In this document: piece by piece, positions 556 through 45,395 of the stretch
How positions within the stretch are numbered: position 1 is the first letter of the stretch
How the letters are laid out: the number at the start of each line of letters is the position of its first letter
Source of the DNA: Nannobrachium achirus
Taxonomy: Eukaryota; Chordata; Actinopteri; Myctophiformes; Myctophidae
NCBI GenBank assembly: GCA_963921795.1
Contig: OY997647.1
Span: 65,217,675-65,281,674 of the forward strand
Reading direction: 5' to 3'
Length of the DNA: 64,000 nucleotides
Made by a program: the position numbers and the translations under genes
The notes under the pieces: model-generated
What the model saw: only the letters and a program-made list of their open reading frames with translations
Database searches by the model: none
Told to the model about the DNA's origin: nothing

Positions 556-1209
556 TGCAAAAATCACAAGTCCCTCACAGAAAGGGGGATATAAGCATGT
601 GACACTGGACTCACCTCCTCACAGAAGGGGGGATATAAGCATGTGACACTGGACTCACCTCCTCACAGAAGGGGGGATATAAGCATGTGACACTGGACTC
701 ACCTCCTCACAGAAGGGGGGATATAAGCATGTGACACTGAACTCACCTCCTCACAGAAACGGAGGTGAAGGGGGGACAGAAGACTCACCTCCTCACAGAA
801 AGGGGGATATAAGCATGTGACACTGGACTCACCTCCTCACAGAAACGGAGGTGAAGGGGGGATAGAAGACTCACCTCCTCACAGAAACGGAGGTGAAGGG
901 GGGATAGAAGACTCACCTCCTCACAGAAGCAGAGGTGAAGGGGGGACCGAAGCCTCACCTCCTCACAGAAACGGAGGTGAAGGGGGGACCGAAGCCTCAC
1001 CTCCTCACAGAAACGGAGGTGAAGGGGGACAGAAGACTCACCTCCTCACAGAAACGGAGGTGAAGGGGGGATAGAAGACTCACCTCCTCACAGAAACGGA
1101 GGTGAAGGGGGGATAGAAGACTCACCTCCTCACAGAAACGGAGGTGAAGGGGGGATAGAAGACTCACCTCCTCACAGAAACGGAGGTGAAGGGGGGATAG
1201 AAGACTCAC
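556..1209. repeat. Minisatellite built from the 3' junction of exon 1210-1325
   Basis: Two related arrays. At about 560-790 the period is 44 bp (units carry ATATAAGCATGTGACACTGG). From about 745 to 1209 the period is 42 bp, with about 11 copies. On the minus strand each 42-bp unit repeats the last codons of the adjoining exon (CTCCGTTTCTGTGAGGAG) followed by the donor GTGAGT. The period is a multiple of three and the reading frame stays open through the array. The array therefore supplies a series of donor copies and potential in-frame exon extensions. Confidence 0.85.
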
Positions 1210-1325
1210 CTCCTCACAGAAACGGAGGTCCACAGACTTGCCGTCGCTGCGAACACAGTCCAGCATGCGGGTCTTGATCCCACTGCCACACACCGCTCTC
1301 TCACTCAGCTGACAGGTGCTCCAAT
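1210..1325 (-). CDS. thsd7a: THSD7A exon (TSP1 segment DWSTCQLSE...), 116 nt
   Basis: Minus-strand exon encoding residues that begin (D)WSTCQLSERAVCGSG and end near KSVDLRFCEE. From memory this closely matches mammalian THSD7A (WSTCQLSEKAVCGNG...). The WxxC start and CGxGxxTR core are typical of a THSD7 TSP1 repeat. The acceptor reads CCCTGTCAG and the donor GAG|GTGAGT. It starts in phase 1, completing the Asp codon begun by exon 3259-3400, and ends in phase 0. THSD7A is a membrane protein with a tandem TSP1 ectodomain, linked to endothelial migration and podocytes. Both sides of this exon are flanked by minisatellites copied from its own junctions, so the exact donor used is uncertain: several downstream copies are in frame. 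Confidence 0.93.
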
Positions 1326-1925
1326 CTGACAGGGAACAAACACACACCGACCACATGATCAGGGCTCATCTACATCTACATGACAGGTGCTCCAATCTGA
1401 CAGGAGAACAAACACACACCGACCACATGATCAGGGCTCATCTACATCTACATGAACACACACCGACCACATGATCAGGGCTCATCTACATCTACATGAA
1501 CACACACCGACCACATGATCAGGGCTCATCTACATCTACATGAACACACACCGACCACATGATCAGGGCTCATCTACATCTACATGCACAAACCAACCAC
1601 ATGATCAGGGCTCATCTACATCTACATGACATCTCATCTACATGTCTCATCTACAATCTGACAGGGAACAAACACACACCGACCACATGATCAGGGCTCA
1701 TCTACATCTACATGATCAGGGCTCATCTACATCTACATACACAAACCAACCACATGATCAGGGCTCATCTACATCTACATACACAAACCAACCACATGAT
1801 CAGGGCTCATCTACATCTACATACACAAACCAACCACATGATCAGGGCTCATCTACATCTACATACACAAACCAACCACATGATCAGGGCTCATCTACAT
1901 CTACATGACATCTCATCTACATGTC
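1320..1925. repeat. Minisatellite copied from the acceptor side of exon 1210-1325
   Basis: Period is about 42-43 bp, core ACCACATGATCAGGGCTCAT followed by CTACATCTACAT. The exon's own 5' edge and acceptor (CAGGTGCTCCAATCTGACAG) is the first unit's left part and recurs at about 1384, with a partial copy near 1650. Later units keep only the intronic part. About 12 copies. Confidence 0.8.
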
Positions 1926-2070
1926 CGTAAGACTTTGTTTAGTGCGTGGCAAATTATAGATTATAGATTCCACACCATTATGTTCTTATTTTGATCATAC
2001 AACCCAATTACTGAAAGTCAAGTCTCCAGGTTTGCTTCAGAATACTGATATTTACTATGAATGTCAGGAG

Positions 2071-2504
2071 TAGGGATGTCCCGATACCACTTTTTTGCTG
2101 ACCGAGTACAAGTACGAGTACTTCATTTTGAGTACTCGCCGATACTGAGTACCGATACGAGTACAATTAATAATACAAAATGTCTTTAAATTACGTTTTT
2201 TTTTCTTTTTTTTTTAAATTGCATTGCTTTCCCAGAACATGGCACAACTGCCACACATTTCACTTTTCTTTTCAGGTTTAGCCCATGGAAATTCCTGTAC
2301 TGTGCATGATCTTCTAGATCTGCTATGCTCAAACATTTTGTATTTTTACTTTTGATACTTTAAGAGAGAGAGAGAAAGGCGAAGTGGCGGAACACACAGG
2401 GTACTCAGGCGCTTTGTGAGCAGTATCGGACGAGTACCGATACCGCAAAATAGGCCGGTATTGAGGCGAGTACCGATACCACGAGTACCGATACCGCATC
2501 CCTA
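2071..2504. mobile_element. Non-autonomous hAT element, 434 bp
   Basis: Termini TAGGGATG and CATCCCTA are inverted. They are flanked by a perfect 8-bp target duplication GTCAGGAG (2063-2070 and 2505-2512). The interior is rich in CCGATACC/GAGTACCGATAC repeats. No transposase frame was seen. Confidence 0.9.
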
Positions 2505-2892
2505 GTCAGGAGTCCAACTAGTACTAGTTGTTCTCAAATATGTTTTATTTGCAAGGACCATCTTAACAAGAGAGCGTCCAAATGAAACCAAATGGATCCA
2601 TGGAAAGGGTCCATGTGGTTCCATTTGAACTCACTCAAATGTACAGACCTGTTATGGTCCTTCAGGGTTAGCTCTTTTACTGTACGTGTTTCTGTTAAGA
2701 TTATCGTCCACTCACTTTGAATGTCTGTTTTGACCAAACTGTCCAGCACAAGCCAACATGGGATGACCTTCATCCAAACACACACACATCCCAACCACAT
2801 GTGTTCAGATTGCATTCTCAATAACAAGGTCACATAAACAATATTCACTTAAAACCCGATTAAAACAATAAAATGAGTTCAGGTTACATATC

Positions 2893-3150
2893 GTCACTGT
2901 CGGACAGAAACCTTGTATCTCCAAGTTTCAAATTTGTTCTTTCTTTCGCAAAGTAAAGCCCTGCTTCATCATCCAAGGCCATCTCACAAAAGTAGTGAAA
3001 ACAGCCGATCTACAAGCACACAACGCCTCGCACCGCGAGGCGTTGTGTGCTTGTAGATCGGCTGTTTTCACTAGTTTAAATCATTTTTAAAATGATAAAT
3101 GCAAAACGAACCGTTTTGGACATACAAGGTTTTCATCTGACAACGACGGT
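2893..3150. mobile_element. Hairpin element, family A internal form
   Basis: Inverted ends (TCGTCACTGTCGGACAGAAA on the left, a related CGACAACGAC-type end on the right) surround a near-perfect palindrome at 2994-3072 with arm core GCCGATCTACAAGCACACAA. The same sequence forms the middle of the 540-bp hAT elements at 24748, 26736, 48980 and 58225. Confidence 0.75.
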
Positions 3151-3186
3151 ATGCTCTAGGTGGGGGTGTTTCAGTAACATGCTCAC

Positions 3187-3258
3187 CAGTGATGTTGTAG
3201 GAGTAATGGAAGCAGTTGTTACCAGTGATGTTGTAGGAGTAATGGAAGCAGTTCTTAC
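3187..3258. repeat. Two extra 36-bp copies of an exon end plus donor
   Basis: Two head-to-tail copies of the last 36 nt of exon 3259-3400 including its donor. On the minus strand they give three successive donors (GTAAGA, GTAACA, GTGAGC) at 36-nt spacing, all in the exon's frame. See the finding on alternative donors. Confidence 0.92.
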
Positions 3259-3400
3259 CAGTGATGTTGTAGGAGTAATGGAAGCAGTTCCGGTTCAGTC
3301 CGCATGGCTCCGTCTCCTTGGTGGGGGGGCAGTCCTTTCCCTGGCCGGGTTGACGGATGGGGAGGGCTGTCCTCTCCCGAGTGCTGTTCACACTGCAGGG
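3259..3400 (-). CDS. thsd7a: THSD7A exon (TSP1 segment, RQP...CFHYSYNIT), 142 nt
   Basis: The minus-strand exon starts with PCSVNSTRERTALPIRQP, contains KDCPPTKETEPCGLNRNC and ends NCFHYSYNIT. From memory it matches the THSD7A block PIRQPADEG...EPCNLNKNCYHYDYNVT. Acceptor CCTCTTGCAG, first donor G|GTAAGA; phase 0 in, phase 1 out, joining exon 1210-1325. It contains the closing cysteines of one TSP1 repeat and two N-glycosylation sequons (NST, NIT). The oddity is that the last 36 nt with the donor are repeated twice more downstream, in frame, so the transcript could gain 12 or 24 residues. The exon boundary given is the most upstream donor, which gives the canonical junction. Confidence 0.94.
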
Positions 3401-3416
3401 CTGCAAGAGGGGACAC

Positions 3417-3535
3417 AGGGACGTGCAGAGAATGTTAGAGAGGCAGGGGCTGACATTTCTAAAAGGGCCTTTTGGTGAAAACATATAGAAAATAGCCAAC
3501 CTCCGAGCTTGTATTGCTAGTTTTTATTGTGTTTT
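3417..3535. mobile_element. Fragment of CAGGGACGTGCA hAT family
   Basis: Begins CAGGGACGTGCAGAGAATG and carries a half hairpin module near 3490-3520. Truncated copy of the element complete at 20152-20554. It lies only 16 nt upstream of the acceptor of exon 3259-3400. Confidence 0.6.
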
Positions 3536-3651
3536 TATTCAGTTTTTGTCAGTGAAAAAAAAGAAAACACACACACACACTGATATAAACCACAAGTAGG
3601 TTCATGAGATAGAGCAAAGAAAGGTTTAAGTCACTTGTTGTCACCTGACAG

Positions 3652-4025
3652 GGACGTGCAGAGAAGCTTAGAGAGGCAGGGGCTGACATTTCTAAAAAGG
3701 CCTTTTGGTGAAAATATGAAAAATAGCTGACCTGAGCTTGGAGGTCGGCTATTTTCGTTGCTTGATACCACACTGAACTAAGCATAATCAAGTGAATACT
3801 GGAGATGTGGCGTAACGGCATGGATTTCTACACAGAGAGGGCAGTTCTTTCAACATAAGATGCTGCATTCAAGTTCAGGAGAGTTTGGACAAGGCAATTC
3901 TCTTGAATGCTGCCTTCAGGTATGGCATGGAAAGAGGGGGCATTTTCATTTCTTTCACCATAGTGAAAACTGTGTTCCTGTTCTGGAGAGGACACCTTTT
4001 ACAGACGGGTAAAAGGGCAGGGGCA
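3652..4025. mobile_element. CAGGGACGTGCA hAT family, partial copy
   Basis: Starts CAGGGACGTGCAGAGAAGC and contains the hairpin core near 3716-3755 (GAGCTTGGAGGTCGGCTATT). The remainder matches the reverse complement of 20152-20554. The right end is lost. Confidence 0.7.
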
Positions 4026-4400
4026 GTAACGCCTTACTTTACTTGATTACTCCCTGGAGAAAGTCATTAGTTACACTACTTACATTACTTTTGCGTTACT
4101 CCATAAACTCGCCTGAGATGCATTGTCACGTAATTTGCCACTTAATATAACATAACCTTACTTGTGATGATATATTAGCACAAATATTTATCCTAATAAG
4201 CAGGACAGGGGGGGGGGGGGGGGGGTTCATAGTAACACAAGTAACGACTAAAGCGTTTGACCAGTAACTGTGGTGTGATAACTCATTACCGGAAAAAAAA
4301 GTTACCTGTAACTCTGTTAGTGGTGAGTGAGTGGTTCAGTCAATAAGCTGAACATTCCTCATGATATTACATTAATGCCAGGAGAGGATATACACTAAGA

Positions 4401-4450
<50 letters not shown>

Positions 4451-4912
4451 AGAGAGAGAGAGACAGACAGAGAGAGAGAGAGGGAGAGAGAGAGAGAGAT
4501 TTTCCACAGCTGTAGCAGCAGCGTCTGCATTTCCCTCATCGGCATCAGCCAGATAAAACTGATCCTGGACTCAAACGCGTGTCAAACGGTTTCTATTTGT
4601 GGGGTTCTTGTGCGGTGTGTGGGGGGGGGGGGGGGACGACAACGACACATTCCATATCCATGCTAATTATCCGTCCCTAGAGGACCACAGGGTGACTGAC
4701 AGCTCCCCCCCCCCCCCCCTCCTGCGTTGCTACGCTACACATTCCAGCGTATCATTCTTGTTGTACATGCAGGATTTGGATGCTAGCGTGCTATTTATAG
4801 AGGCGTGGCGTGATTACACCAAGTACACACTCAAATGCTGGTGTAGCAGACTGACTCACAGCCTCAGCATGATGCCCTCAAGAGTCTAGTATCTCCCTCA
4901 GTCCATAGGGAT
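4026..4912. other. Intronic DNA with low-complexity tracts
   Basis: No gene was seen. It contains a G run at about 4207-4226, an interrupted (GA)n tract at about 4404-4499, and G/C homopolymers near 4620-4636 and 4706-4720. Part of the left side resembles the fish repeat rich in AAGTAACG/GTTACT words. Confidence 0.5.
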
Positions 4913-4985
4913 GTCCCTTTGGATCAATGGTTAAGATATTGGACTTTCACATGGGAGACCCGGGTTTGAATCCTGAGCGTTACAC
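4913..4985 (+). pseudogene. tRNA-Glu-like sequence, degenerate tRNA or SINE head
   Basis: A TCAATGGTTAAGAT box-A-like stretch, an anticodon-like loop ACTTTCACA (TTC, Glu) and GGGTTTGAATCC (box B) are spaced as in vertebrate tRNA-Glu. The acceptor ends do not pair, so it is not a functional tRNA. It could be a pseudogene or the head of a tRNA-derived SINE. Confidence 0.45.
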
Positions 4986-5084
4986 TGGTGACCCATCAAG
5001 ACCCGAGGCCCATTCCACAACATTGTGTTCACTGTGGCTGAACTGCTATTGAACAACATTATTTCTATAGGACTATAGTTGCTA

Positions 5085-6180
5085 TGTGTATAATTAATTG
5101 TCTCCACCAGCCGAAGGCATGGGGGAGAGTATGTTTTTGTCCGTCCGTCCGTCCGTCCGTCCGGGCGTCCGTCCGGGCGTCCGTCCGTCCGTTACAAGCT
5201 AATCTCCGGCGCCGTTGGCCCGGTCGCTGCCAAACTATGCACACACACTCCCTGGATACCAATTCAGAACATGGGCCATCAGGAGGCCGTTTTTTGCAAA
5301 ACTAACTATTGCCAGTACTCCTACAGATTTTGTCCGAAAATCACACAAATCGGTAGACAGTGTCTCTACAGTCATGTGATCGACATGGATCTGTCCCATT
5401 TTCTATATTCCATCCTGATTGGCTAAAACTGGCATCCAAAGTTATCAGGATTGGTCAGTTTTGAATAAAATGCCAGAAATCATGAACGCAGTGTGCGATT
5501 TTGGTGAAATTGTGCATGCACATTCCCAATAGGAATAAATGCCACTTAAATATTTTCAAATCAGCCTCATGGTGGCGCTATAACAGGCCGATTTTTGTTT
5601 TTACCTATAACTCCACTGATCAGTGTACAACCTTTTTTTCACATATAGCACCAGCAAGACTCCCTAATCGGGAGATAAGCGACCGTCAGGTCGCAGCGTG
5701 ATTTTAGTCCAAAATGTGTAGGAGCAGTGTCCAAAAATGTGTTTTAAAAACTCTGCCTGAAGGTGGTGCTAAATGGAACAGATCCATGTTGATGACATGA
5801 GTGTAGAGCAAGTGTGTACAGATTTGCGTGATTTTAGGGCAAAATTCGTAGGAGCAGTGTCCAAAAATGTGTTTGAAAAAATCGGCCTGATGGTGGCGCT
5901 ATATGGGACAGATCCATGTTGATGACATCAGTGTAGACATACTGTGTAGTGATTTGCGTGATTTTAGGGCAAAATCTGTAGGAGTAGTGTCCACAAATGT
6001 GTTTTAATAAATCGGCCTGAAGGTGGCGCTAAATGGGACAGATCCATGTTGATGAGATGAGTGTAGATATACTGTGTACCGATTTGCATGATTTTAGGGC
6101 AAAAATTGTAGGAGCAGTGTCCAAAAATGTGTTTTGCAAGAATCGGCCTCATGGTGGCCATGATGCAAAATGCATCACTA
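5085..6180. mobile_element. Repeat element with (CCGT)n tract and an internal ~120-bp tandem array
   Basis: Begins GTCTCCACCAGCCGAAGGCA, then a GTCC/CCGT microsatellite at about 5137-5192. From about 5700 to 6160 there are four roughly 120-bp tandem units with CGGCCTGAAGGTGGCGCTA and GATTTGCGTGATTTTAGGGC. An inverted relative lies at 54040-54455. Confidence 0.65.
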
Positions 6181-6850
6181 GTCCTGCTGAAATACTAAAA
6201 TATCTAAAACACAGATTGAACACAAAAAATAACTCAGGATTGTGTTGATCGTGTCCCGAACAACAATAAAATAAGATAGGGTTGTCCCAGAGGTGAAGTG
6301 GGCCTTTAAATAAAGACCAGTTCCCTCAACAAGAAGTAGTCCATGCGTTACTAAAGGGCAACTCAAATCACTGCAATTTCATCCTCCACAACGCTCTAAC
6401 GCTTAAACGTATGCTCCGCTGTACGGAGGAGGATAAACCGGGGCTTAAAACAGATTTGCCTCGCTGCAAATCTTTGCTCTGAACTGGGCTTAATAGACGA
6501 GGTTGTTGCCTTACTGAATCAGAGACACACGGCCACTTAGATTCACATGTTTTGGTCCTGCCCGCCCTTGTCGGCATGGATTCTGGGGCTCCATGTTTAA
6601 ATCCCTGAGTGAAGCCCCTACAACATCCTTTTAGTGTAAAACCAGAGAATGCTGTCCGGTCAACACAACACGTTTGATGTGTGTCTCCTTCAGAGGTGGC
6701 CCAGCCAATAGGCAGAGTAGGCGACTGCCTAGTAGGGCATTCACGAATAGTGATTTTTTGTATTCGAATTATTCGACCTCAAAGTATTTGAATAGTCGAA
6801 TATTCGACAGGAGTGGCCAAACTGTCAAATATTAAGTAAGCAAGAGGCGA
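6181..6850. other. Intronic sequence, no gene seen
   Basis: No exon or clear element boundaries. A TAGGGCATTCACGAATA-like hAT end occurs near 6733 with no partner found. Confidence 0.4.
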
Positions 6851-6852
6851 AC

Positions 6853-6935
6853 ATTGTGAAAATAGCCGATCTACATGCTCACACCGCCTCGCGTTGCGAG
6901 GCGTTGTGAGCATGTAGATCTGCTATTTTCACAAT
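6853..6935. repeat. 83-bp hairpin module
   Basis: Near-perfect inverted repeat: 40-nt arms, 3-nt loop, core GCCGATCTACATGCTCACA. Two mismatches were seen across the stem. Member of the hairpin set described in the findings. Confidence 0.85.
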
Positions 6936-7579: not shown

Positions 7580-7580
<1 letters not shown>

Positions 7581-7655
<75 letters not shown>

Positions 7656-7690
7656 GTGTGCGTGCGAGCGTGTATGTGTGTGTGGGTGGG
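7581..7690. repeat. (GT)n microsatellite
   Basis: About 35 GT dinucleotides with a few CG interruptions toward 7690. The long frames through it are artefacts of the dinucleotide. Confidence 0.95.
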
Positions 7691-9250: not shown

Positions 9251-9359
9251 GGCTGCGGCACCGGAAATGCCACATGCCTTCTGCGCAATGAACGATGGGA
9301 TGTTGGAAAGTTGTGGATAGGGATATGTATAGATTTAGATATAGATGTAGATATAGATA

Positions 9360-10570
9360 GAGTATATTATAGTATATATACCAGTGTACAGGGACTCCAG
9401 GGTCATTCAGATATATATATAGTATATTATAGTATATATACCAGTGTACAGGGGCTCCAGTCATTCAGATAGAGTATATTATAGTATATATACCAGTGTA
9501 CAGGGGCCCCAGTCATTCAGATAGAGTATATTATAGTATATATACCAGTGTACAGGGGCCCCAGTCATTCAGATAGAGTATATTATAGTATATATACCAG
9601 TGTACAGGGGCTCCAGGGTCATTCAGATATAGATAGAGTATATTATAGCATATATACCAGTGTACAGGGGCTCCAGTCATTCAGATAGAGTATATTATAG
9701 TATATATACCAGTGTACAGGGGCCCCAGGGGCCCCAGTCATTCAGATATAGTATATTATAGTATATATACCAGTGTACAGGGGCTCCAGGGTCATTCAGA
9801 TATAGATAGAGTATATTATAGTATATATACCAGTGTACAGGGGCTCCAGTCATTCAGATAGAGTATATTATAGTATATATACCAGTGTACAGGGGCCCCA
9901 GGGGCCCCAGTCATTCAGATATAGTATATTATAGTATATATACCAGTGTACAGGGGCTCCAGGGTCATTCAGATATAGATAGAGTATATTATAGTATATA
10001 TACCAGTGTACAGGGGCCCCAGTCATTCAGATATAGTATATTATAGTATATATACCAGTGTACAGGGGCTCCAGGGTCATTCAGATATAGATAGAGTATA
10101 TTATAGTATATATACCAGTGTACAGGGGCCCCAGTCATTCAGATAGAGTATATTATAGTATATATACCAGTGTACAGGGGCCCCAGTCATTCAGATAGAG
10201 TATATTATAGTATATGTACCAGTGTACAGGGGCCCCAGTCATTCAGATATAGTATATTATAGTATATATACCAGTGTACAGGGGCCCCAGTCATTCAGAT
10301 AGAGTATATTATAGTATATGTACCAGTGTACAGGGGCCCCAGTCATTCAGATAGAGTATATTATAGTATATATACCAGTGTACAGGGGCTCCAGGCCCCC
10401 CAGTCGTTCAGGACACAGTCTTCAGTGCAGTATAGATATAGATATATTATAATAGTACCAGTGTACAGGGGCTCCAGTCATTCAGATAGAGTATATTATA
10501 GTATATATACCAGTGTACAGGGGCTCCAGGGTCATTCAGATATAGATAGAGTATATTATAGTATATATAC
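9360..10570. repeat. Minisatellite of ~22 copies of the 3' junction of exon 10571-10724
   Basis: Units of about 52-60 bp. On the minus strand each contains a shortened copy of the exon's last codons (CTGAATGACTGG then CCCCTGTACACTG) followed by donor GTATAT and AT-rich intron. The array is therefore exon end plus donor, repeated about 22 times immediately downstream of the real donor. Confidence 0.9.
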
Positions 10571-10724
10571 CAGTGTACAGGGGCTCCAGGCCCCCCAGTC
10601 ATTCAGCACACAGTCCTCAGGGCAGGGCAGTCTGCTGTCTCGGGCCCCTAGCGGCATCTCCTCTGGATCACACAGGTAGTCTTCAACCTGGTCTGAGGGC
10701 CCGTCTATGGTGTTCTGCATGCAC
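10571..10724 (-). CDS. thsd7a: THSD7A exon (CMQNT...EDYLCDPEEMPLG), 154 nt
   Basis: The minus-strand exon encodes (R)CMQNTIDGPSDQVEDYLC, then DPEEMPLGARDSRLPCPEDC and VLNDWGAWSPCTL. From memory THSD7A reads CMQNTADGPSEHVEDYLCDP at the same place. It spans the end of one TSP1 repeat and the WxxW-type start of the next. Acceptor GCGTGCAG; phase 2 in, completing Arg from exon 17458-17591; phase 0 out. The donor GTATAT is weak. The acceptor lacks a normal pyrimidine tract: directly upstream is a (GT)n/(GCGT)n microsatellite on the sense strand. The downstream intron starts with a long minisatellite made of this junction. Confidence 0.94.
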
Positions 10725-10734
10725 CTGCACGCGC

Positions 10735-17457: not shown

Positions 17458-17591
17458 CTGACTTTGCGGGTCTGGATTCCCTCTCCACAGTTCTCCTTTA
17501 GATCCACGTTGCTCACCTTCCACACGCTCCAGGGCTCTGCTACCCACACGTACTGACCACAGTCCGACAGGCAGGGGACCACCTCATATAC
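17458..17591 (-). CDS. thsd7a: THSD7A exon (VYEVVPCLSDC...), 134 nt
   Basis: Minus-strand exon VYEVVPCLSDCGQYVWVAEP, then WSVWKVSNVDLKENCGEGI, QTRKV(R). It aligns from memory to THSD7A VYEVVPCHSDCNQYLWVTEP. It holds the CSVTCG-equivalent CGEG core of a divergent TSP1 repeat. Acceptor TCTTATAG, donor CAG|GTAATC; phase 0 in, phase 2 out. Without the microexon at 18338-18343 the mammalian Ala-Gln dipeptide before VYEVV would be missing. Copies of its acceptor and first codons are repeated upstream at 17592-17880. Confidence 0.94.
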
Positions 17592-17880
17592 CTATAAGAT
17601 ACAATACCACACATACTGAGGCAGAGGACCACCTCATATACCTATAATAATACACAGTCACTGAGCAGGGGACCACCTCATATACCTATAATAATACACA
17701 GTCACTGAGGCAGAGGACCACCTCATATACCTATAATAATACACAGTCACTGAGCAGGGGACCACCTCATATACCTATAATAATACACAGTCACTGAGGC
17801 AGGGGACCACCTCATATACCTATAAGATACAATACCACACATACTGAGGCAGGGGACCACCTCATATACCTATAGGATAA
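17592..17880. repeat. Minisatellite from the acceptor side of exon 17458-17591
   Basis: About six units of 55-65 bp. Sense-strand units read TATTATAG then GTATATGAGGTGGTCC, reproducing the acceptor plus the first codons (VYEVVPCL). They create several upstream decoy acceptors. Confidence 0.88.
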
Positions 17881-18337
17881 TACAACAATACTGCACTCCT
17901 CATACTGACCACAGTCACTACTGTACACATACTGTACAGGTGTACTGTACTGCTCACAGTTGCTAAGGCACAAGTCTGACAACTCATTACTCTGACTATG
18001 TGGCTATACGTGTGTGGTTAGGGTTAGGTCGCCTCCTTCCACGGCTGCGGCCGGGCGGAGATATTCTACACATCCTGTGGATGGTCATAAACTATAATTC
18101 ATTCATTTTTACTGAGGCTGTGGTCAATAAGCTGATATGCCATATATGGAGAAGAAGGGTCCCAGGTTCTTTCTAATGCTATTAGTTTGAGTCCCCCATT
18201 ACCAACATTCAGTGAAAACCTTAATTGTACAACTTGAGTGAAAACCTTAATTGTACGTACAGTAGTTAAGTAAATTGTAAAGACACAAAGGTAACCAATT
18301 AAATTAGTTTAGTTTTTGCAAAAAAAAATGCACTCAC

Positions 18338-19021: not shown

Positions 19022-19315
19022 TCATACTGACCTGGTTGACATGGTCCAGTTTGGGGCAGGGTCTACAGGGTCATACTGACCTGGTTGGGACAGGGTCTAG
19101 GTTGGGACAGGGTCTACAGGGTCTACAGGGTCATACTGACCTGGTTGGGACAGGGTCTAGGTTGGGACAGGGTCTACAGGGTCTACAGGGTCATACTGAC
19201 CTGGTTGGGACAGGGTCTAGGTTGGGACAGGGTCTACAGGGTCTACAGGGTCATACTGACCTGGTTGGGACAGGGTCTAGGTTGGGACAGGGTCTACAGG
19301 GTCTCATATACTAAC
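19022..19315. repeat. Minisatellite from the donor side of exon 19316-19494
   Basis: Four units of exactly 60 bp, plus a left unit that still contains the exon end GACATGGTCCAGTTTGGGGC (plus strand). Sense-strand units carry CCCAACCAG|GTCAGTATG, a donor copy resembling the real AACCAG|GTTAGTAT. Confidence 0.9.
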
Positions 19316-19494
19316 CTGGTTGACATGGTCCAGTTTGGGGCAGGGTCTTCCTCCGTTGTAGGGCTTCTCTCTGAGCCACTTGGAGCGAACTTTGACCCCG
19401 CTGCCGCAGGACTTGCTGCAGCGAGACCAGTTGGACCACTCACTGAGCTTACAGTCTGATGGACAGGGGATGATGCAGGCCTCCTCGATGTAGC
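19316..19494 (-). CDS. thsd7a: THSD7A exon (YIEEACIIPCPSDC...HVNQ), 179 nt
   Basis: Minus-strand exon (G)YIEEACIIPCPSDCKLSE, then WSNWSRCSKSCGSGVKV, RSKWLREKPYNGGRPCP, KLDHVNQ. This is near-identical to remembered mammalian THSD7A and shows the canonical TSP1 layers: WSNWSxC (C-mannosylation-type tryptophans), CSKSCGSG, and the Arg layer. Acceptor GGTCCCCAG, donor CAG|GTTAGT; phase 1 in from exon 29877-30143, phase 0 out. Confidence 0.96.
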
Positions 19495-27589: not shown

Positions 27590-28908
27590 CCCAATAAAAA
27601 GAACAAGTGGTGGGGCCTTCTCCTCCCCTCCCTGACACCAAACCACCAGAATAAAAAGAACAAGTGGTGGGGCCTTCTCCTCCCCTCCCTGACACCAAAC
27701 CACCAGAATAAAAAGAACAAGTGGTGGGGCCTTCTCCTCCCCTCCCTGACACCAAACGACCAGAATAAAAAGAACAAGTGGTCGGGCCTTCTCTTCCCCT
27801 CGCTGACACCAAACCACCAGAATAAAAAGAACAAGTGGTCGGGCCTTCTCTTCCCCTCGCTGACACCAAACCACCAGAATAAAAAGAACAAGTGGACGGG
27901 CCTTCTCTTCCCCTCGCTGACACCAAACGACCAGAATAAAAAGAACAAGTGGTGGGGCCTTCTCTTCCCCTCGCTGACACCAAACCACCAGAATAAAAAG
28001 AACAAGTGGTCGGGCCTTCTCTTCCCCTCGCTGACACCAAACCACCAGAATAAAAAGAACAAGTGGACGGGCCTTCTCTTCCCCTCGCTGACACCAAACG
28101 ACCAGAATAAAAAGAACAAGTGGTGGGGCCTTCTCTTCCCCTCGCTGACACCAAACCACCAGAATAAAAAGAACAAGTGGTCGGGCCTTCTCCTCCCCTC
28201 GCTGACACCAAACGACCAGAATAAAAAGAACAAGTGGTCGGGCCTTCTCTTCCCCTCGCTGACACCAAACCACCAGAATAAAAAGAACAAGTGGTCGGGC
28301 CTTCTCCTCCCCTCGCTGACACCAAACGACCAGAATAAAAAGAACAAGTGGTCGGGCCTTCTCTTCCCCTCGCTGACACCAAACCACCAGAATAAAAAGA
28401 ACAAGTGGTGGGGCCTTCTCTTCCCCTCGCTGACACCAAACCACCAGAATAAAAAGAACAAGTGGTGGGGCCTTCTCTTCCCCTCGCTGACACCAAACCA
28501 CCAGAATAAAAAGAACAAGTGGTGGGGCCTTCTCTTCCCCTCGCTGACACCAAACCACCAGAATAAAAAGAACAAGTGGTGGGGCCTTCTCTTCCCCTCG
28601 CTGACACCAAACCACCAGAATAAAAAGAACAAGTGGTGGGGCCTTCTCTTCCCCTCGCTGACACCAAACGACCAGAATAAAAAGAACAAGTGGTCGGGCC
28701 TTCTCTTCCCCTCGCTGACACCAAACGACCAGAATAAAAAGAACAAGTGGTCGGGCCTTCTCCTCCCCTCGCTGACACCAAACGACCAGAATAAAAAGAA
28801 CAAGTGGTCGGGCCTTCTCTTCCCCTCGCTGACACCAAACGACCAGAATAAAAAGAACAAGTGGTCGGGCCTTCTCTTCCCCTCGCTGACACCAAACGAC
28901 CAGAATGA
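27590..28908. repeat. 57-bp minisatellite, 23 units
   Basis: Unit core CCAGAATAAAAAGAACAAGT, then a GGTGGG/GGTCGG/GGACGG variable block and TTCCCCTCGCTGACACCAAA. The period is a multiple of three and the unit has no stop in several frames, so open frames of 343-558 codons run through it on both strands. Variant patterns show higher-order duplication. No evidence of a gene. Confidence 0.95.
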
Positions 28909-29876: not shown

Positions 29877-30143
29877 CGTGGCTGTTGCATCGTGCGGTCT
29901 CCACCATGCGGTCGTCCTGGTCGTAACAGACCATGGCCTGGTAGCGGTACCCCTGCCCACACTCCCTGATGTCCCCCTGGACCTTCATGCCCAGCTGTCC
30001 CTCCGCGCGCCCCCCCTCGGGCAGGATGCAGTCCGACCAGTTGCCCACCGGCTGGGCGTTGTACTTGTTGCACGGGCAGTACTGTGTCTCTGACAGAGGG
30101 TACGACTGGCTGTTCTTGCACTGGTCTCGCTTCTTGCTCTTCC
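29877..30143 (-). CDS. thsd7a: THSD7A exon (GKSKKRDQCKNS...RCNSHG), 267 nt
   Basis: Minus-strand exon (G)KSKKRDQCKNSQSYPL, SETQYCPCNKYNAQPVGNWS, DCILPEG, then KVQGDIRECGQGYRYQAMVC and ETARCNSH(G). It matches remembered THSD7A (TQYCPCDKYNAQPVGNWSDC...GYRYQAMACYDQNG) almost residue for residue. It contains one cysteine-rich TSP1-like repeat with NWSDC (also an N-glycosylation sequon) and the CGQGYRYR-type layer. Acceptor CCTTCCAG, donor ACG|GTGAGC; phase 1 on both sides. It is the only full-size exon here without a junction-derived repeat; instead a hAT element lies 12 nt beyond its donor. Confidence 0.96.
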
Positions 30144-32773: not shown

Positions 32774-32955
32774 CCACGAGCATCCTCTTGCGGGTTCGCA
32801 CGCCCACGCAGTCGGCGGTGCAGGGGGAGAACTTGGACCAGGGCGTGAGCTGGCAGTCCTCCTGGCAGGGCAGCTGGCATGGCTGGGTGAGGGCGGGCAT
32901 GGCGCTGGCATGCTGCAGACACGCCCCCATGTCCGCCTGGCCCCCGTCCTGCTTT
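32774..32955 (-). CDS. thsd7a: THSD7A exon (KQDGGQADMGACLQ...), 182 nt
   Basis: Minus-strand exon (R)KQDGGQADMGACLQHA, SAMPALTQPCQLPCQEDC, QLTPWSKFSPCTADCVG, VRTRKRMLV(G). It matches remembered THSD7A (KQDGGQAGIHECLQYAG...LTQACQIPCQDDCQL). It includes the closing PC...C pair of one TSP1 repeat and WSKFSPC...RTRKR of the next. Acceptor GTCTTGCAG, donor GTGG|GTGAGT; phase 2 in, phase 1 out. The exon that should precede it (ending ...C plus AG of an Arg codon) was not found in the window. Confidence 0.95.
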
Positions 32956-32971
32956 CTGCAAGACACCGCTG

Positions 32972-33440
32972 AGGAGGAGAGACAGAGGAATGAGACTTAA
33001 TGCTTTCTGTAAGAAACCACTGAGGAGGACAGAGAGGAGAGAGAGACAGAGGTTTGAGACTTAATGCTTTCTGTAAGAAACCGCTGAGGAGGACAGAGAG
33101 GAGAGAGAAGAGAAGAGGTTTGAGACTTAATGCTTTCTGTAAGAAACCACTGAGGAGGAAAGAGAGGAGAGAGAGAAGAGGTTTGAGACTTAATGCTTTC
33201 TGTAAGAAACCACTGAGGAAGAGAGAGAGGAGAGAGAGACAGAGGTTTGAGACTTAATGCTTTCTGTAAGAAACCACTGAGGAGGACAGAGAGGAGAGAG
33301 AGACAGAGGTTTGAGACTTAATGCTTTCTGTAAGAAACCACTGAGGAGGACGGAGAGGAGAGAGAGACAGAGGTTTGAGACTTAATGCTTTCTGTAAGAA
33401 ACCACTGAGGAAGAGAGAGAGGAGAGGAGAGAGAAGAGCT
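32972..33440. repeat. Minisatellite from the acceptor side of exon 32774-32955
   Basis: About seven units of roughly 64 bp. On the sense strand each has a pyrimidine tract (CTCTCTCTCCTCTCTGTCCT) then TTTCTTACAG and AAAGCA, copying the real TCTTGCAG|AAAGCA. Each unit is a plausible 3' splice site. Confidence 0.9.
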
Positions 33441-33800: not shown

Positions 33801-34000
33801 NNNNNNNNNNNNNNNNNNNNNNNNNNNNNNNNNNNNNNNNNNNNNNNNNNNNNNNNNNNNNNNNNNNNNNNNNNNNNNNNNNNNNNNNNNNNNNNNNNNN
33901 NNNNNNNNNNNNNNNNNNNNNNNNNNNNNNNNNNNNNNNNNNNNNNNNNNNNNNNNNNNNNNNNNNNNNNNNNNNNNNNNNNNNNNNNNNNNNNNNNNNN
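33801..34000. other. Assembly gap, 200 N
   Basis: Exactly 200 undetermined bases, a round number that suggests an unmeasured gap. It lies in the interval where at least two THSD7A exons are missing. Confidence 0.99.
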
Positions 34001-39300: not shown

Positions 39301-39379
39301 TGTTTTGGTCTCCCCTGTTTGTTTCCCCAATCACTATTTAAATGCTAGAGAAGTGAAGTCTTGCCAGTTGCTGCGAGTT

Positions 39380-39526
39380 GGGGGGGGGGGGGGGGGGGGT
39401 GCTACTGGTCCAGGCGCATACCACTCAGGCATTGCCACATACGCATGGATGTCGGGCGGCGGCGCCAGTTCGATTCCCGATCCGGACAACATTTGCCGCA
39501 TGTCGCTCACCCCCCCCCCCCCCCCC
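39380..39526. repeat. Paired G and C homopolymer runs
   Basis: A G run of about 19 at 39380-39398 and a C run of about 17 at 39510-39526, separated by ordinary sequence. Prone to sequencing error. Confidence 0.9.
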
Positions 39527-39549
39527 ATTTCCTGTGAGTCTACTCAGTA

Positions 39550-39622
39550 GAGGCTTTTATGCCTTTATTAGATAGGACAGTAGACTCTACTGTCCTATCT
39601 AATACAGGCATAAAAGCCTTTA
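39550..39622. repeat. Perfect-arm hairpin, ~70 bp
   Basis: GAGGCTTTTATGCCTTTATT/AGATAGGACAGTAGA is mirrored by TCTACTGTCCTATCT and AATACAGGCATAAAAGCCTT. Unrelated to the GATCTACAAGC module. Confidence 0.85.
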
Positions 39623-40377
39623 TTAAAAGCCAAATCTTTAAAACTGTTTCCGGTTTGGTAGTTCCAGCCAAATTGTCAGAACCGGTGCCAGGAAGTGTAT
39701 TCGCTGTCCCTCCAAAGTGTAGTCAGTCTGATGACTACAACATGACGTAGGTTGTTTCCGCTTCCGACTGGATCAGAAACCCAACATGCTACTGAATCCC
39801 AGGCTACCCAGCTATGGGCGGTTTAGTTCAGACCTTCTCCATTACAGCTATAGAGCATCGCAGTGGCCGTGGTACTGGTGCCACTAAACAAATCTCCTGT
39901 TCATTTCCTCATAGACTTTCACGAAGATATTTAGAACAATTATGTTAAGCATAGAATCCAGGATGTCATGATCATAAAACAGTTTTTTCTGTGCAAAGAA
40001 CATTTTGAAAATCGCTAAAACAAAGGATATTTATTAAATGTATCAAATAATGAAATATTAAAATACGTTTTCATATAGGATCAAATGTTGTATGGTCATG
40101 ATTCACTGCCATCCTGTATGGCTTGGTTCTAGGCTTTACACAATTGTTATAAATATTTTTTGTAAAAGTCTATGGGGAAAATGAATGGGAGATTTTTTTG
40201 TCACACCACTTCTGCTGCCATGCTCTATATGCTGTTAGGTTCAGGTCTTCTCTCTACGCTGCTCCAAACATCAGAGATTCAGCTGAGCCAGCACACCGTG
40301 CACCCAGCAGCATTTAACAGACTGAGGGATCTGGACTAGACACACACATCTCTATCTCCTTCTACTTAATAAAACAT

Positions 40378-40748
40378 ATGGTCGCTGACGGGTGGAAACC
40401 TTGTACGTCCAAAGCCGTTAGGAATCGGAAAAAATATATTTATAAGTTGGGGTGTTCATTCTTTGGATCCAATGTGGTAGTTATTGAGTCCCAAGCTCTT
40501 GGTTGTACTTTTCATTGGTGAAATACCCTTCCCATATAGACACTTTCACTTTTACATTAAAACATTTGCAAAAACTAGTAGATCTACAACCTCACAACAC
40601 ATCACATGATGTACTGTGATGCGTTGTGAGCTTGTATATCTGCAATTTTTGCCACTTTTCACTGTAGTAGGACAATGAAGGGTATTCATTTACAAAATAA
40701 GGTTGCAACATGGAGATAGAGGGTTTCTGCTGCCCGACAGTAACCATA
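40378..40748. mobile_element. Hairpin element, long variant
   Basis: Ends GGTCGCTGACGGGTGGAAAC and CTGCCCGACAGTAACCATAT are inverted. Hairpin at about 40566-40654 with an unusual CATCACATGATGTACTGTGA loop. Confidence 0.7.
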
Positions 40749-41436
40749 TGCAGCCTAAGGGAGGCTACGTGTTTTACAACATCAGCTAAAAGCCCTCTCA
40801 GGACCTCTCTACTACTGTACGTCTAACTATAGGGTATAACATCTCTACTCTTATATAAGAACATATAATGTATAATACAAGTACCAAAGATGGGAGGAAC
40901 CATGGACAGCCGGGAAACACCTTGAGAAAGAGCAGAGGAATGTATGAAGTTGTGATCAATTCTATAAAGACGATTCATACATTTATTAAAGAGGAGCCAG
41001 AAAGTAGTGTACGATAGAGAATGAGCTCAATGTATCTCTTATGCATGAAGGCTCTGACACTGTGAATAAAATACTGACTCTCTCTCCACTCTCAAACTAC
41101 AGTAATATTCACTAACACACTCAGTCTCCAACTACAGTAATATTCTCTAGCACTGACTACAGTGAGTGGTGGAAGAATTGCTGAGAGTTTGAAGTAAAAA
41201 GTAAACCCCTCTACTGAGATGCTCTTATGGCTGCATTGCTCATCCATACTGCACATAAATCCAATACCACCATGTAGAAATGTACTCTGTTAAAAGTTTA
41301 AAGTCCTGTATGCAAAATGTGACCTGGCTAAAAGTACAAAAGTAGGATTGGCATCGAAATGTTCTTATAGTGCCAAAGTAAAAGTAATATATGTGTTTTC
41401 TTTTCAAAAGCTATCACACACACAAAAAAAAAGAAA

Positions 41437-41505
41437 ACTAATCTACCCATCTACAATCCCACAGCGCATCGCATCACGTTGTGAGCTTGTAGATTGTCTA
41501 TGTTT
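41437..41505. repeat. Degenerate hairpin module
   Basis: ATCTACAATCCCACAGCGCA and CACGTTGTGAGCTTGTAGAT; the outer stem is eroded. Confidence 0.55.
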
Positions 41506-41574
41506 GAGCATAAAATAGGGCTTAAGTGGTCAATGTATTTGCACCACTGACTACAATTACTACAGCTATGGAGA

Positions 41575-41760
41575 CCTCTATCCAGCTATGGAGTCTATCT
41601 ATGGAGTCTATCTATGGAGTCTCTAGACCTCTATCTATGGAGTCTCTAGACCTCTATCTATGGAGTCTCTAGACCTCTATCTATGGAGTCTCTAGACCTC
41701 TATCTATGGAGTCTCTAGACCTCTATCTATGGAGTCTCTAGACCTCTATGCAGCTATGGA
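41575..41760. repeat. ~23-bp minisatellite
   Basis: Unit CTATCTATGGAGTCTCTAGA + CCT, about 7 copies. Confidence 0.92.
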
Positions 41761-41808
41761 GTTTCTCTAAGCTTCTATGAAGACACAGCAGCCTCTACTA
41801 CATCTTAC

Positions 41809-41847
41809 CCTGCATGACAGTGATCCAGGCCACAACCCTAGCGGTGG
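41809..41847 (-). other. Miniexon-like cassette (uncertain)
   Basis: Sense strand has acceptor TTCCTCCCTCCACAG, 39 nt open in phase 1-1, then donor G|GTAAGA. Phase 1 agrees with exon 45201-45395 upstream. The 13 encoded residues do not resemble any part of THSD7A I can recall, so this may be chance or a lineage-specific or decayed exon. Confidence 0.25.
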
Positions 41848-42480
41848 CTGTGGAGGGAGGAACACACTCACATCACAACCCTAGTGGTGGCTGTGGAGGG
41901 AGGAACACACTCACATCACAACCCTAGCGGTGGCTGTAGGAACACACTCATATCACAACCCTAGTGGTGGCTGTGGAGGGAGGAACACACTCACATCACA
42001 ACCCTAGCGGTGGCTGTAGGAACACACTCATATCACAACCCTAGTGGTGGCTGTGGAGTGAGGAACACACTCACATCACAACCCTAGCGGTGGCTGTAGG
42101 AACACACTCATATCACAACCCTAGTGGTGGCTGTGGAGGGAGGAACACACTCATATCACAACCCTAGCGGTGGCTGTGGAGGGAGGAACACACTCACATC
42201 ACAACCCTAGCGGTGGCTGTAGGAACACACTCATATCACAACCCTAGTGGTGGCTGTGGAGGGAGGAACACACTCACATCACAACCCTAGCGGTGGCTGT
42301 AGGAACACACTCATATCACAACCCTAGTGGTGGCTGTGGAGGGAGGAACACACTCACATCACAACCCTAGCGGTGGCTGTAGGAACACACTCACATCACA
42401 ACCCTAGCGGTGGCTGTAGGAACACACTCATATCACAACCCTAGCGGTGGCTGTGGAGGGAGGAACACATTCATATCACG
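41830..42480. repeat. Minisatellite carrying acceptor-like sequence
   Basis: Units of about 36 and 44 bp alternate: AACCCTAGTGGTGGCTGTGG plus AGGGAGGAACACACTCACAT, with or without the GGAGGGA block. On the minus strand the long units read TTCCTCCCTCCACAG, a good 3' splice site. About 15 units. Confidence 0.9.
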
Positions 42481-42832
42481 GTGACATGTGCTTAATGTCT
42501 ACACCAAACTGAAGATATGGTGCAGCACAATGAGTTAGAACAAACATGACACAACCGTTCTAGCACAGCAATGTTATATATGTTAAAATCTTGTAGGCGT
42601 TTAATCCAAAGCACGTATATGCAAAAAATATGTGTGTGTGTGTGTGTGTGTGGGGGGGGGGTTGGAGAACCTTCTGTGGACATGCCCCCTTTCACAGCTT
42701 AACACATTATATGCCCACGTGGTGCCCACACGCCAATCTCTTTGATGTTTACGTGTGCCCAACGACACGTTCGACGTGTTGTACAGTAAACTATACTGTA
42801 CTGTAGCTACTGTACTTGGCTACCGCGGTGAT

Positions 42833-42926
42833 GAAACAAACTCCATTTCCCAAAATGCAGCGTGAAATCACGTGACCAGGACGTGCTGTCTGTCTCGTTG
42901 ACTTCCTGTTTAACGGCTGCACAAAA
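42833..42926 (+). promoter_or_regulatory. Possible TATA-less promoter
   Basis: Clustered motifs: AACTCCATTTCCCAAAATGC (like the ZNF143/THAP11 site ACTACAATTCCCA), ATCACGTGACC (USF/E-box) and ACTTCCTG (ETS). AAAATGGCGGG (YY1-like) follows at about 43103. Such clusters are typical of vertebrate housekeeping promoters. Motif reading only. Confidence 0.45.
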
Positions 42927-43095
42927 ATGCAGTTTTCTCCGGATTCTTTTCCTCTTTTTTCTCAAAACGGCGGCCTCTTCTACCGGCCGTACCACAAACG
43001 CTGTGGCTTAGAATTGATAAAAAACGGTCGCGAAATAAACAGGACATGCTTGGATTACATTTACTCGGATTACTTTTCTCGCCAGTACTTCGAAG
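42927..43095 (+). CDS. Candidate first coding exon of an unknown nested gene
   Basis: An ATG 40-90 nt downstream of the motif cluster opens 56 codons beginning MQFSPDSFPLFSQNGGLFYR and ending DYIYSDYFSRQYFE. It ends in a donor-like GAAG|GTAGGTAAA, with an in-frame stop just beyond. Composition (Tyr, Phe, Arg, Cys) looks protein-like but I do not recognise a family. No downstream exon was identified. It would lie on the strand opposite THSD7A within its intron. It could also be a chance frame; too short to call without transcripts. Confidence 0.3.
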
Positions 43096-43685
43096 GTAGG
43101 TAAAATGGCGGGTTGCCATGGGCACCAGCAAATTAAATGTTGAATAATTCTGGGCACCCGATGTGTTAACAGACCACTCCAGACTAAATAATATCTATAT
43201 GCTAATTTTCCTACTTATAAAGATCCCAGATGACCGTCCATGGGGTCTATTAGGCTGTCATCCAGTTTCCCCAGCAGACCTCACAGCACAGAGCGGAGCT
43301 CATACGCATATTGCTGCATATGCAATTTGTTGCATGTGTTTTGATGAGTTGTCATTACAAACACATCCGTGCCTTGGTTGTCCCACACAAGCTGTCTCAT
43401 AAATCAGGCTTTGGGGTGACCGTTTGAACTGCCAATCAAAGTGACTGCTACGGGCCAATCACAGAGCGCCTTTTCTGGGACTTGGCGAAACCCACAAATA
43501 CTGGTCGAGCATCAAATCACACACCAATCGTTTCAGTAATAGTTTTTTTTTTTGCCCAAGCAGTCAGGTTGCTGAACGGTTGAAACATAGGCAATAGCCA
43601 CTGCACACACTTTTTAAGCTGTACACTGTTACACTGTATGGTATGGGATGTAGGTCTACACTTTTGTTGGTAACTGGCTTGCTCT

Positions 43686-44095
43686 TCCCAGCAAGCACGG
43701 TCAGGACCTGGACCAATCAGTGACGTCTGGATTGGGGCCAGATCAAGTCAAACCATGACTAGTCAGATCTGGCCTAGAATATCACCTGATTTCAACCAAC
43801 ATAAATCCTGCCCACGAAAACGGACATCCTGGATTAATCAGAGAGGATCTGATCGAGGCCAGATAAATATCATAACTAGTCAGATACGTCCCAGAATATA
43901 ACCTTACATGCTCATATTTCAACCTACATCACAAACAATAACAATAATCCTGTCAAACAAAAAAGGCCATATGACGTCCTGGTAATGACGTCAAGATCAT
44001 CCCCATATGGGCTGTGATCTGGCCTGGTTCTGAACGTCACCGGAGTCACCGGAGGACATTATCATAACGTCATGACGTCATTTGGCTTGCAGGGT
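43686..44095. mobile_element. Inverted-end repeat, CCCAGCAAGC ends
   Basis: Left CCCAGCAAGCACGGTCAGGA, right GGCTTGCAGGGTT. Interior with several CAGATC/GATCTGGCC words. Boundaries approximate. Confidence 0.5.
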
Positions 44096-44159
44096 TAGCA
44101 CAAGCTGCACAAGCTGCACATTGTATGGATATATGTGACAATAAACCTGAACCTGAACA

Positions 44160-44295
44160 TAAGAGCATAAGCTCTGTTTAGCAGAGTGTGGATGGAGGAA
44201 CTCACCCTCTGATAAACACATGCGTTTATTTTATTTCTATTTTATATTTTCGGGACTTTGCGAAACACATAACCTCTGTTCAGCAGAGTGTTGGC
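44160..44295. repeat. Upstream copy of the donor region of exon 45201-45395
   Basis: Block AAGAGCATAAGCTCTGTTTA...GGAACTCACCCTCTGATAAA is repeated at 45059-45188, about 0.9 kb away. ACTCACCCTCT matches the exon's donor edge (plus strand). The block is interrupted by the hAT at 44296. Confidence 0.85.
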
Positions 44296-44774
44296 CAGTG
44301 TTGTGTTTGACAGCACATTTTGATTCAGTTTTAGTCATAGTCTTTTGAATAAAATGTCATTTAGTTTTAGTCTAATTTTAGTCGACTAAATATCATAGGA
44401 TTTTAGGCGACTAAATCTACAGTTGATTTAGTCAACTAAAATGTATTTTGGCAGAGATTGATGGCATCGTAATGACTGATTTTACACTTGGTTTGCGTGC
44501 TGAAAATACAAGCTCACAAGCTTGTAGATCTGCTATTTTAAGCGAGCAAAACCTGAGAGCAACCAAACATAAAATGACTCTCTTCCCCACCAGTCCCTCC
44601 CTAACGTTTTAGTCTAGTTTTAATTTTGTTGACAACGTTGTCAATATATTTAGTCTTATAGTTTTAGTCATCACAGCTTAGTTTTTATTTCGTTTTTATT
44701 TAGTTTTTGTCAGTGACAAAAACACAGTCGACAAACATTTTTTGTCATAGTTTTAGTCGACGAAATCAACACTG
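44296..44774. mobile_element. Non-autonomous hAT, 479 bp, CAGTGTTG family
   Basis: Ends CAGTGTTG/CAACACTG. Flanks GTGTTGGC and GTGTTGGA match at 7 of 8. Short hairpin core at about 44501-44540 (ACAAGCTCACAAGCTTGT). Rich in TTTTAGTCGAC words. Confidence 0.88.
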
Positions 44775-45058
44775 GTGTTGGATGAACTCTTGTTGACTTT
44801 GTCCTCAAAGGTACGTATGGGTTTGGTTTTGCCAGAGGTTCTGTTTTTTACTACACGCCTTTGTTTTTTCAAAGAGCGAAGTTTAGGCTAAAACATGCCC
44901 CTGGAGGCCTCCCATTGTGTCATAAGATTGGTTGAAATAAATCAAATATTTCTGTGGGGGTGGCTAAATAATCGGGGGGCGTTCCTAATGTAGGTACCTT
45001 TAGGGTTCTATGGAAACCAGTTTGGCAAGTGGGACAAAGTCAACAGGATACCACTGTA

Positions 45059-45200
45059 AGAGCATAAGCTCTGTTTAGCAGAGTGTGGATGGAGGAACTC
45101 ACCCTCTGATGAACCCATGCGTTTATTTTATTTTTATTCTATATTTTCAGGACTTGGTGAAACACATAACCTCTGTGTAGCAGAGTGTTGATGAACTCAC
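45059..45200. repeat. Second copy of the exon-donor block, adjoining exon 45201-45395
   Basis: Repeats 44160-44290 with few changes. Together with the true donor this gives three copies of ACTCACCCTCT (plus strand). Confidence 0.85.
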
Positions 45201-45395
45201 CCTCTCCAGCGTTATAAGCCAGTATGGATCTGGCCCTCATCTGCCTCCCCTCGGTGTTCTTCCCAGAGCAGGTGTGTGAGCACATCGTCCAGGAGGTCCA
45301 GGGGCTCAGGGCACAGTCCTTGGAGCAGGGCACCTCGCACATCACGGGCATGGGCAGGATGGCATCGCGGCACAGCTGCCTCTCCACGTACTCCC
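45201..45395 (-). CDS. thsd7a: THSD7A exon (EYVERQLCRDAI...ARSILAY), 195 nt
   Basis: Minus-strand exon (G)EYVERQLCRDAILPMPVM, CEVPCSKDCALSPWTSWTMC, SHTCSGKNTEGRQMRARSI, LAYNAGE(G). It matches remembered THSD7A (VDRQLCRDAIFPIPVACDAPC...CSHTCSGKTTEGKQIRARSI). It contains the end of one TSP1 repeat and WTSWTMCSHTC, the start of the next. Acceptor CCTCCCTCCAG, donor GAGG|GTGAGT; phase 1 on both sides. It is the most 5' THSD7A exon in the window. The preceding exon is not seen in the remaining 18.6 kb, so that intron is at least that long or the exon was missed. Confidence 0.96.

What the first reader, a model, noticed from the sequence alone, without database searches (positions are those of the whole stretch)
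556..45395. Minisatellites beside THSD7A exons are multiplied copies of the exons' own splice junctions
At seven of eight full-size exons the adjacent repeat contains that exon's boundary. Donor copies: exon 1210-1325 (42 bp, ~11x), exon 3259-3400 (36 bp, 3x), exon 10571-10724 (~54 bp, ~22x), exon 19316-19494 (60 bp, 4x), exon 45201-45395 (dispersed, 3x). Acceptor copies: exon 1210-1325, exon 17458-17591 (~60 bp, ~6x), exon 32774-32955 (~64 bp, ~7x). The units differ in sequence and length, so each array arose independently from its own junction. Something appears to nucleate tandem duplication at exon-intron borders in this gene or genome, and the arrays create dozens of decoy splice sites.
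Basis: partly seen in the sequence, partly recalled or inferred. Interest (0 to 1): 0.88.

Follow-up and report, generated by a model that had tools for sequence, protein, structure and literature searches.

The report
Exon-edge minisatellites near chromosome ends
In this fish, genes near chromosome ends carry short DNA repeats that are copies of their own exon-intron borders, a pattern known from lancelets that fills the genes with decoy splice sites.

Summary
The window holds eight fish THSD7A exons (minus strand). Eight of 16 junctions, at seven of eight exons, lie in repeats whose units include the junction. By array origin the excess is strong: 4 of 12 gene-part arrays include a real junction by TRF interval against 0.19 expected (7 of 12 by reading). 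By coverage alone it is modest.

Two findings go further. (1) It is not a THSD7A oddity. In 68 test loci of the same genome, repeats at exon edges score in 10 of 26 loci within 4 Mb of a contig end (all within 2.4 Mb) and 0 of 42 farther in. The window lies 2.4 Mb from its contig end. (2) A second THSD7A copy, about 91% identical, lies 65-71 kb away. All 11 junction arrays compared are repeated in both copies; only 1 of 9 ordinary intronic arrays is (p = 7e-5).

Best reading: chromosome-end regions make many tandem duplications, and those that include an exon edge persist. Preferential seeding at junctions is not excluded. Junction-spanning minisatellites are known in lancelets ("mirages"); I found no vertebrate case this dense or tied to chromosome ends in print.

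The parts
1210..1325 (-). THSD7A exon; both junctions in arrays
   Evidence: AG/GT borders and homology
573..1229 (-). donor-junction array of exon 1210-1325, unit 42-44 bp; includes the last 20 exonic bases
   Evidence: TRF, read, 14 extra junction copies
1310..1906 (-). acceptor-junction array of exon 1210-1325, units 42-72 bp; only 2 extra units hold the junction itself
3259..3400 (-). THSD7A exon
3185..3290 (-). donor-junction array, 36 bp x 3, with 32 exonic bases shared
10571..10724 (-). THSD7A exon
9355..10606 (-). donor-junction array, 52-60 bp, 21 extra junction copies, one with a longer exon segment near 10376-10435
17458..17591 (-). THSD7A exon
17592..17893 (-). acceptor-junction array, 44-50 bp, 6 extra copies
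19316..19494 (-). THSD7A exon
19022..19348 (-). donor-junction array, 60 bp x 5
29877..30143 (-). THSD7A exon without any junction array (the exception)
32774..32955 (-). THSD7A exon
32956..33432 (-). acceptor-junction array, 64 bp x 7; 6 exonic bases shared
45201..45395 (-). THSD7A exon
45063..45200 (-). donor-junction tandem copy about 105 bp downstream of the exon 45201-45395 donor
44166..44293 (-). further copy of the same donor segment, about 990 bp from the donor

Best explanation
These are junction-spanning minisatellites of the kind called mirages in lancelets. In the outer few megabases of this fish's chromosomes short tandem duplications arise often (shown as a tenfold higher local repeat density). 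Some happen to include an exon edge. Such a duplication leaves one working splice site and the reading frame intact, so it is tolerated, and the array then grows and shrinks on the intron side by unequal exchange (copy-number differences shown, mechanism inferred). Arrays lying wholly in introns are gained and lost quickly. Arrays that contain an exon edge persist, plausibly because one unit is held in place by selection and a deletion that removes the array with its flank would destroy the exon (persistence shown for one gene, reason inferred). Persistence makes exon edges stand out.
For: Origin excess of junction arrays in the window, copy A and copy B. No other array of at least 2.5 copies in copy A lies within 250 bp of an exon (my reading of the list). 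Exonic overlap of 5-44 bases fits duplications with no fixed breakpoint. Two gene copies: all 11 junction arrays have two or more units in both, with different copy numbers; 1 of 9 non-junction arrays does; four of the eight unshared ones are present as a single unit in the other copy (Fisher p = 7e-5). Chromosome-end dependence: 10 of 26 loci under 4 Mb versus 0 of 42 beyond, repeat density 18.3% versus 1.6%. Junction-spanning units read in unrelated genes: myosin L053, ion channels L071, L072, L075-L078 and L080, and TSP1 gene L051.
Against: Per base, junction positives (12 of 50 sides under 4 Mb) are not far above the repeat density there (18.3%), so coverage alone gives little excess. The retention contrast rests on one gene; if the four non-junction arrays with no counterpart in the other copy are set aside it is 11 of 11 versus 1 of 5 (p about 0.003, by hand). 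The acceptor array at 1325 is present in copy B, but no extra unit there holds the junction (8 edits). Two of the ten positive end loci (L054, L055) only abut the acceptor. Several end loci are negative, including L085 at 0.23 Mb. The one clear recent junction duplication leaves room for preferential seeding. No RNA data.
Confidence: 0.55

Rival explanations
1. Junction-targeted seeding: something at exon-intron borders (a splicing-coupled RNA-DNA hybrid, a nucleosome or base-composition step, a recombination initiation site) makes tandem duplications start there.
For: Origin excess. A two-copy junction duplication in copy A that copy B lacks. P0090 and P0093, from other sources, show another duplication at the same exon donor. 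Lancelet mirages occur in several genes (PMC3087553, PMC3902484, passages).
Against: Exonic overlap varies widely, with no fixed breakpoint. At least four intronic arrays arose or collapsed to one unit between the two gene copies, against one two-copy junction event. Exon edges farther than 4 Mb from contig ends have none (0 of 42 loci), so a junction alone is not enough.
Confidence: 0.22
2. Coincidence in a repeat-rich zone: arrays lie everywhere near chromosome ends and some overlap exon edges.
For: Coverage tests are weak (circular-shift p 0.03-0.065). 14% of random intronic positions meet the same criterion (42 of 300). Near ends 24% of exon sides are positive at 18% repeat density.
Against: Coverage counts expanded arrays, whereas an exon edge can only be inside an array whose founding unit contained it. 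By origin the excess is about 20- to 30-fold.
Confidence: 0.12
3. Function: spare splice sites are favoured, for example as insurance against splice-site loss in a fast-mutating region.
For: Copies keep GT or AG; 57 decoys in the window exons, 112 in copy A. Donor units of 42, 36 and 60 bp are multiples of three.
Against: Other units (44, 52, 64 bp) are not. The 60 bp unit has a stop in frame just after the donor. Lancelet mirages are reported not to disturb splicing (PMC3087553, passage). No expression data here.
Confidence: 0.07
4. Assembly artefact.
For: The assembly has gaps and a nearby second gene copy that could be an unpurged haplotype.
Against: Units differ from one another in ordered ways, the same arrays occur in two separately assembled contigs with different copy numbers, and the pattern recurs at seven contig ends counting this gene.
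Confidence: 0.04

Closest known systems
Mirage minisatellites of lancelets (Adh3, globins, TnC, PGBD5)
   Same: Tandem units spanning an exon-intron border, at donors and acceptors, variable copy number between haplotypes, splice signals kept in many units (PMC3087553 passages of section 16; PMC3902484 one passage; the founding 2002 paper was not held).
   Different: Here in a teleost, at about half of one gene's junctions and in unrelated genes, tied to contig ends, and with a retention contrast against ordinary intronic arrays.
Internal tandem repeats at exon-intron boundaries of human genes in segmental duplications (PMC2812944, abstract and passages)
   Same: Minisatellite units about 30 bp at exon-intron boundaries; can create novel introns.
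   Different: Defined by variable repeats in duplicated human genes; not described as copies of most junctions of a gene nor by distance from chromosome ends in what I read.
Subtelomeric VNTR enrichment in humans (PMC7608644, abstract and outline)
   Same: Minisatellites concentrated within 5 Mb of chromosome ends (21-fold for GC-rich VNTRs).
   Different: About VNTRs in general; the abstract says nothing of splice junctions.
Intron creation by tandem duplication of AG/GT (Rogers; cited in PMC3087553)
   Same: Duplication carrying splice signals.
   Different: Here the copies lie inside existing introns; no new intron is shown.

Membership tests
Mirage minisatellite | tandem unit spans an exon-intron border | tested here: met
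Mirage minisatellite | copy number varies between alleles or copies | tested here: met
   copy A versus copy B; whether B is an allele or a paralogue is open
Mirage minisatellite | splice dinucleotides kept in many units | tested here: met
   lenient placement
Mirage minisatellite | normal splicing is not disturbed | not testable with these tools
   no RNA data
Mirage minisatellite | somatic instability (reported at lancelet Adh3) | not testable with these tools
   no reads
Subtelomeric VNTR | concentrated near chromosome ends | tested here: met
   assumes that contig ends are chromosome ends
Subtelomeric VNTR | GC content above 60% (human class) | not tested
   no GC count of the units was run; several units look AT-rich
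THSD7A gene | homology to vertebrate THSD7A over the exons | tested here: met
   best named hit Notothenia coriiceps THSD7A-like, 82% identity over 90% of the query

The most novel reading that the evidence does not exclude
Exon-intron junctions are themselves preferred starting points of tandem duplication near chromosome ends of this fish, so that splicing or transcription structure leaves a mutational scar in DNA, and vertebrate subtelomeric genes continually generate decoy splice sites and possibly new introns.
Probability: 0.25. Interest if true: 0.88.

Novelty: new variant of a known kind. Interest (0 to 1): 0.72.

Why it matters
It extends a lancelet curiosity to a vertebrate, ties it to chromosome position, and gives a testable account (retention by selection versus targeted seeding) of how exon edges acquire repeats. 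Genes near chromosome ends in such genomes carry many decoy splice sites, which bears on gene annotation, intron gain and splicing fidelity.

Tried and rejected
Coverage-based tests gave only modest excess. I report them but hold the origin-based test to be the right one, because array expansion inflates coverage. A GC-rich seed preference was considered; it does not fit units with only 5-6 exonic bases, but I did not test composition. A property of exon neighbourhoods in general was rejected: no array of at least 2.5 copies in copy A lies within 250 bp of an exon without containing its junction (reading of the list). A THSD7A-only cause was rejected. Weak rows dropped from the junction counts: A6a, A10a, A12d and B6a (identity 0.77-0.84, low-complexity sequence). 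One search's A6a row (2 copies, no splice dinucleotide) was dropped from the decoy count by the script. In one search the B array at 60707-60808 was not counted because its counterpart lies outside the compared stretch. L032 is a whole-exon tandem duplication and was not counted as a junction array. Protein family search of the exons gave TSP1 domains only; solved structures gave only thrombospondin-type relatives. The question whether the upstream THSD7A exons are also duplicated elsewhere in the genome did not complete (got no reply), so copy B may be a partial tandem duplicate or an unpurged haplotype.
Full report
What is there. The window is part of a fish THSD7A gene on the minus strand. 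Eight exons (1210-1325, 3259-3400, 10571-10724, 17458-17591, 19316-19494, 29877-30143, 32774-32955, 45201-45395) have AG/GT borders and match vertebrate THSD7A, the best named hit being Notothenia coriiceps at 82% identity over 90% of the joined query. The window is G000 contig C10:65217675-65281674 in a 1.66 Gb assembly, 2.4 Mb from the end of a 67.67 Mb contig.

The arrays. Reading the sequence with TRF and BLAST confirms junction-spanning repeats at donors 1210, 3259, 10571, 19316 and 45201 and acceptors 1325, 17591 and 32955: 8 of 16 junctions and 7 of 8 exons. Units differ in length and sequence. The exonic parts match conserved THSD7A protein sequence, so the exon is the source and the intronic copies derive from it. 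Among the 13 best-supported arrays of copy A and the upstream exons, the best extra copy shares 5 to 44 exonic bases. One search found 57 extra copies with a nearby GT or AG for the window exons and 112 in copy A.

Beyond the window. L009-L028 give 100 kb on each side. More junction arrays occur at further exons of the gene: both junctions of the exons at stretch positions 97894-98011 and 82384-82479, the acceptor at 88602, a two-copy donor at 89254, and the donor of an upstream exon at 201921. Over 16 exons, 12 of 32 junctions score at 5 edits or fewer and 15 of 32 at 6 or fewer; in the second gene copy 9 of 22 and 10 of 22. The 15 include the acceptor at 85105, which lies in simple repeat sequence and is doubtful.

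Chance. By coverage the excess is modest. By origin it is strong: 4 of 12 arrays in the window's gene part, 8 of 19 in copy A and 6 of 13 in copy B include a real junction by TRF interval, against 0.19, 0.26 and 0.18 expected (P = 2e-5, 5e-11, 1e-8). Over the whole window it is 4 of 17 (P = 2e-5). Three more window arrays (1378-1906, 17615-17884, 32971-33432) are junction arrays by reading, although TRF's interval stops short of the working copy.

Two gene copies. A second copy of the 3' part of the gene lies 65-71 kb away, with exon identity 94-100% and about 91% over 24.6 kb of aligned blocks, repeats included. It sits on a contig separated by a 200-N gap, so it may be a partial duplicate or an unpurged haplotype. 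All 11 junction arrays compared have two or more units in both copies, with different copy numbers, for example TRF 11.6 versus 47.5 at donor 1210. In copy B the 1325 acceptor array has no extra unit with the junction itself. Of 9 non-junction arrays, 1 is repeated in both; four are a single unit in the other copy, three have no counterpart and one is dispersed. Fisher p = 7e-5; restricted to arrays with a counterpart locus it is 11 of 11 versus 1 of 5 (p about 0.003, by hand).

Other genes. Exons found by domain searches were fetched as L001-L008, L029-L048, L049-L068 and L069-L088. With one test on all 68 loci, limited to 350 bp flanks, 10 of 26 loci within 4 Mb of a contig end are positive at 3 edits or fewer (12 of 50 testable sides) and 0 of 42 farther in (0 of 84 sides); all positives lie within 2.32 Mb. 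Loci-level p = 1.8e-5, though several loci share a gene and two pairs overlap. The second batch alone gives 6 of 13 versus 0 of 7 (p = 0.05). Local repeat density is 18.3% versus 1.6%. I read 13 of the 26 end loci by eye. Units span a junction in L051, L053 (both sides), L071 (short), L072 (both), L075, L076 (both), L077, L078 and L080, the last being untestable by the script. L054 and L055 only abut the acceptor. These lie at six contig ends, seven with THSD7A. End loci such as L085 (0.23 Mb), L050 and L056 are negative. Chromosome position became a hypothesis after the first controls; L049-L068 were chosen to test it and L069-L088 to repeat it. L085 was fetched as an internal control and proved to lie at a contig end.

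Other species. Of 51 proteins found with the array-bearing exon, P0090 (by script) and P0093 (by eye) show a different duplication at the same donor. The others show none, but this sees only repeats open in frame.

How it likely works. Chromosome ends generate many short tandem duplications (shown as density). Those across a junction leave a working splice site (inferred) and persist (shown in one gene), while intronic ones turn over. Seeding at junctions remains possible.

Known work. Lancelet genes carry such repeats, called mirages; [quoted passage not shown] PMC3902484, one passage; Canestro 2002 not held). Human minisatellites at exon-intron boundaries are described in PMC2812944 (abstract and passages), and human subtelomeric VNTR enrichment in PMC7608644 (abstract and outline). 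Searches listed no vertebrate case of this density; I saw titles and abstract starts only. The library lacks most subscription papers.

Noticed in passing
33801-34000 and 33 to 45.2 kb: A 200-N gap; about 200 residues that lie between these exons in human THSD7A (recalled sequence) were not found in the window, so some exons may be missing at the gap.
   Followed up: partly
L009-L018 (C10:65117675-65217674): A second copy of the 3' part of THSD7A, partial duplicate or unpurged haplotype.
   Followed up: partly
L071: A donor reading AAG/ATAAGT, perhaps of the AT-AC class, with the AAGATAAGT motif repeated downstream.
   Followed up: no
27593-28906: 57 bp unit repeated 23 times inside a 569-residue open frame on the minus strand; no exon nearby.
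   Followed up: no
51110-51261 and 53078-53791: Two arrays share the same 39 bp unit 2 kb apart.
   Followed up: no
L032: Tandem duplication of a whole EGF-type exon, far from a contig end.
   Followed up: no
P0090, P0093: Unnamed ENA proteins with a different tandem duplication at the same THSD7A exon donor, suggesting recurrence in another lineage.
   Followed up: partly
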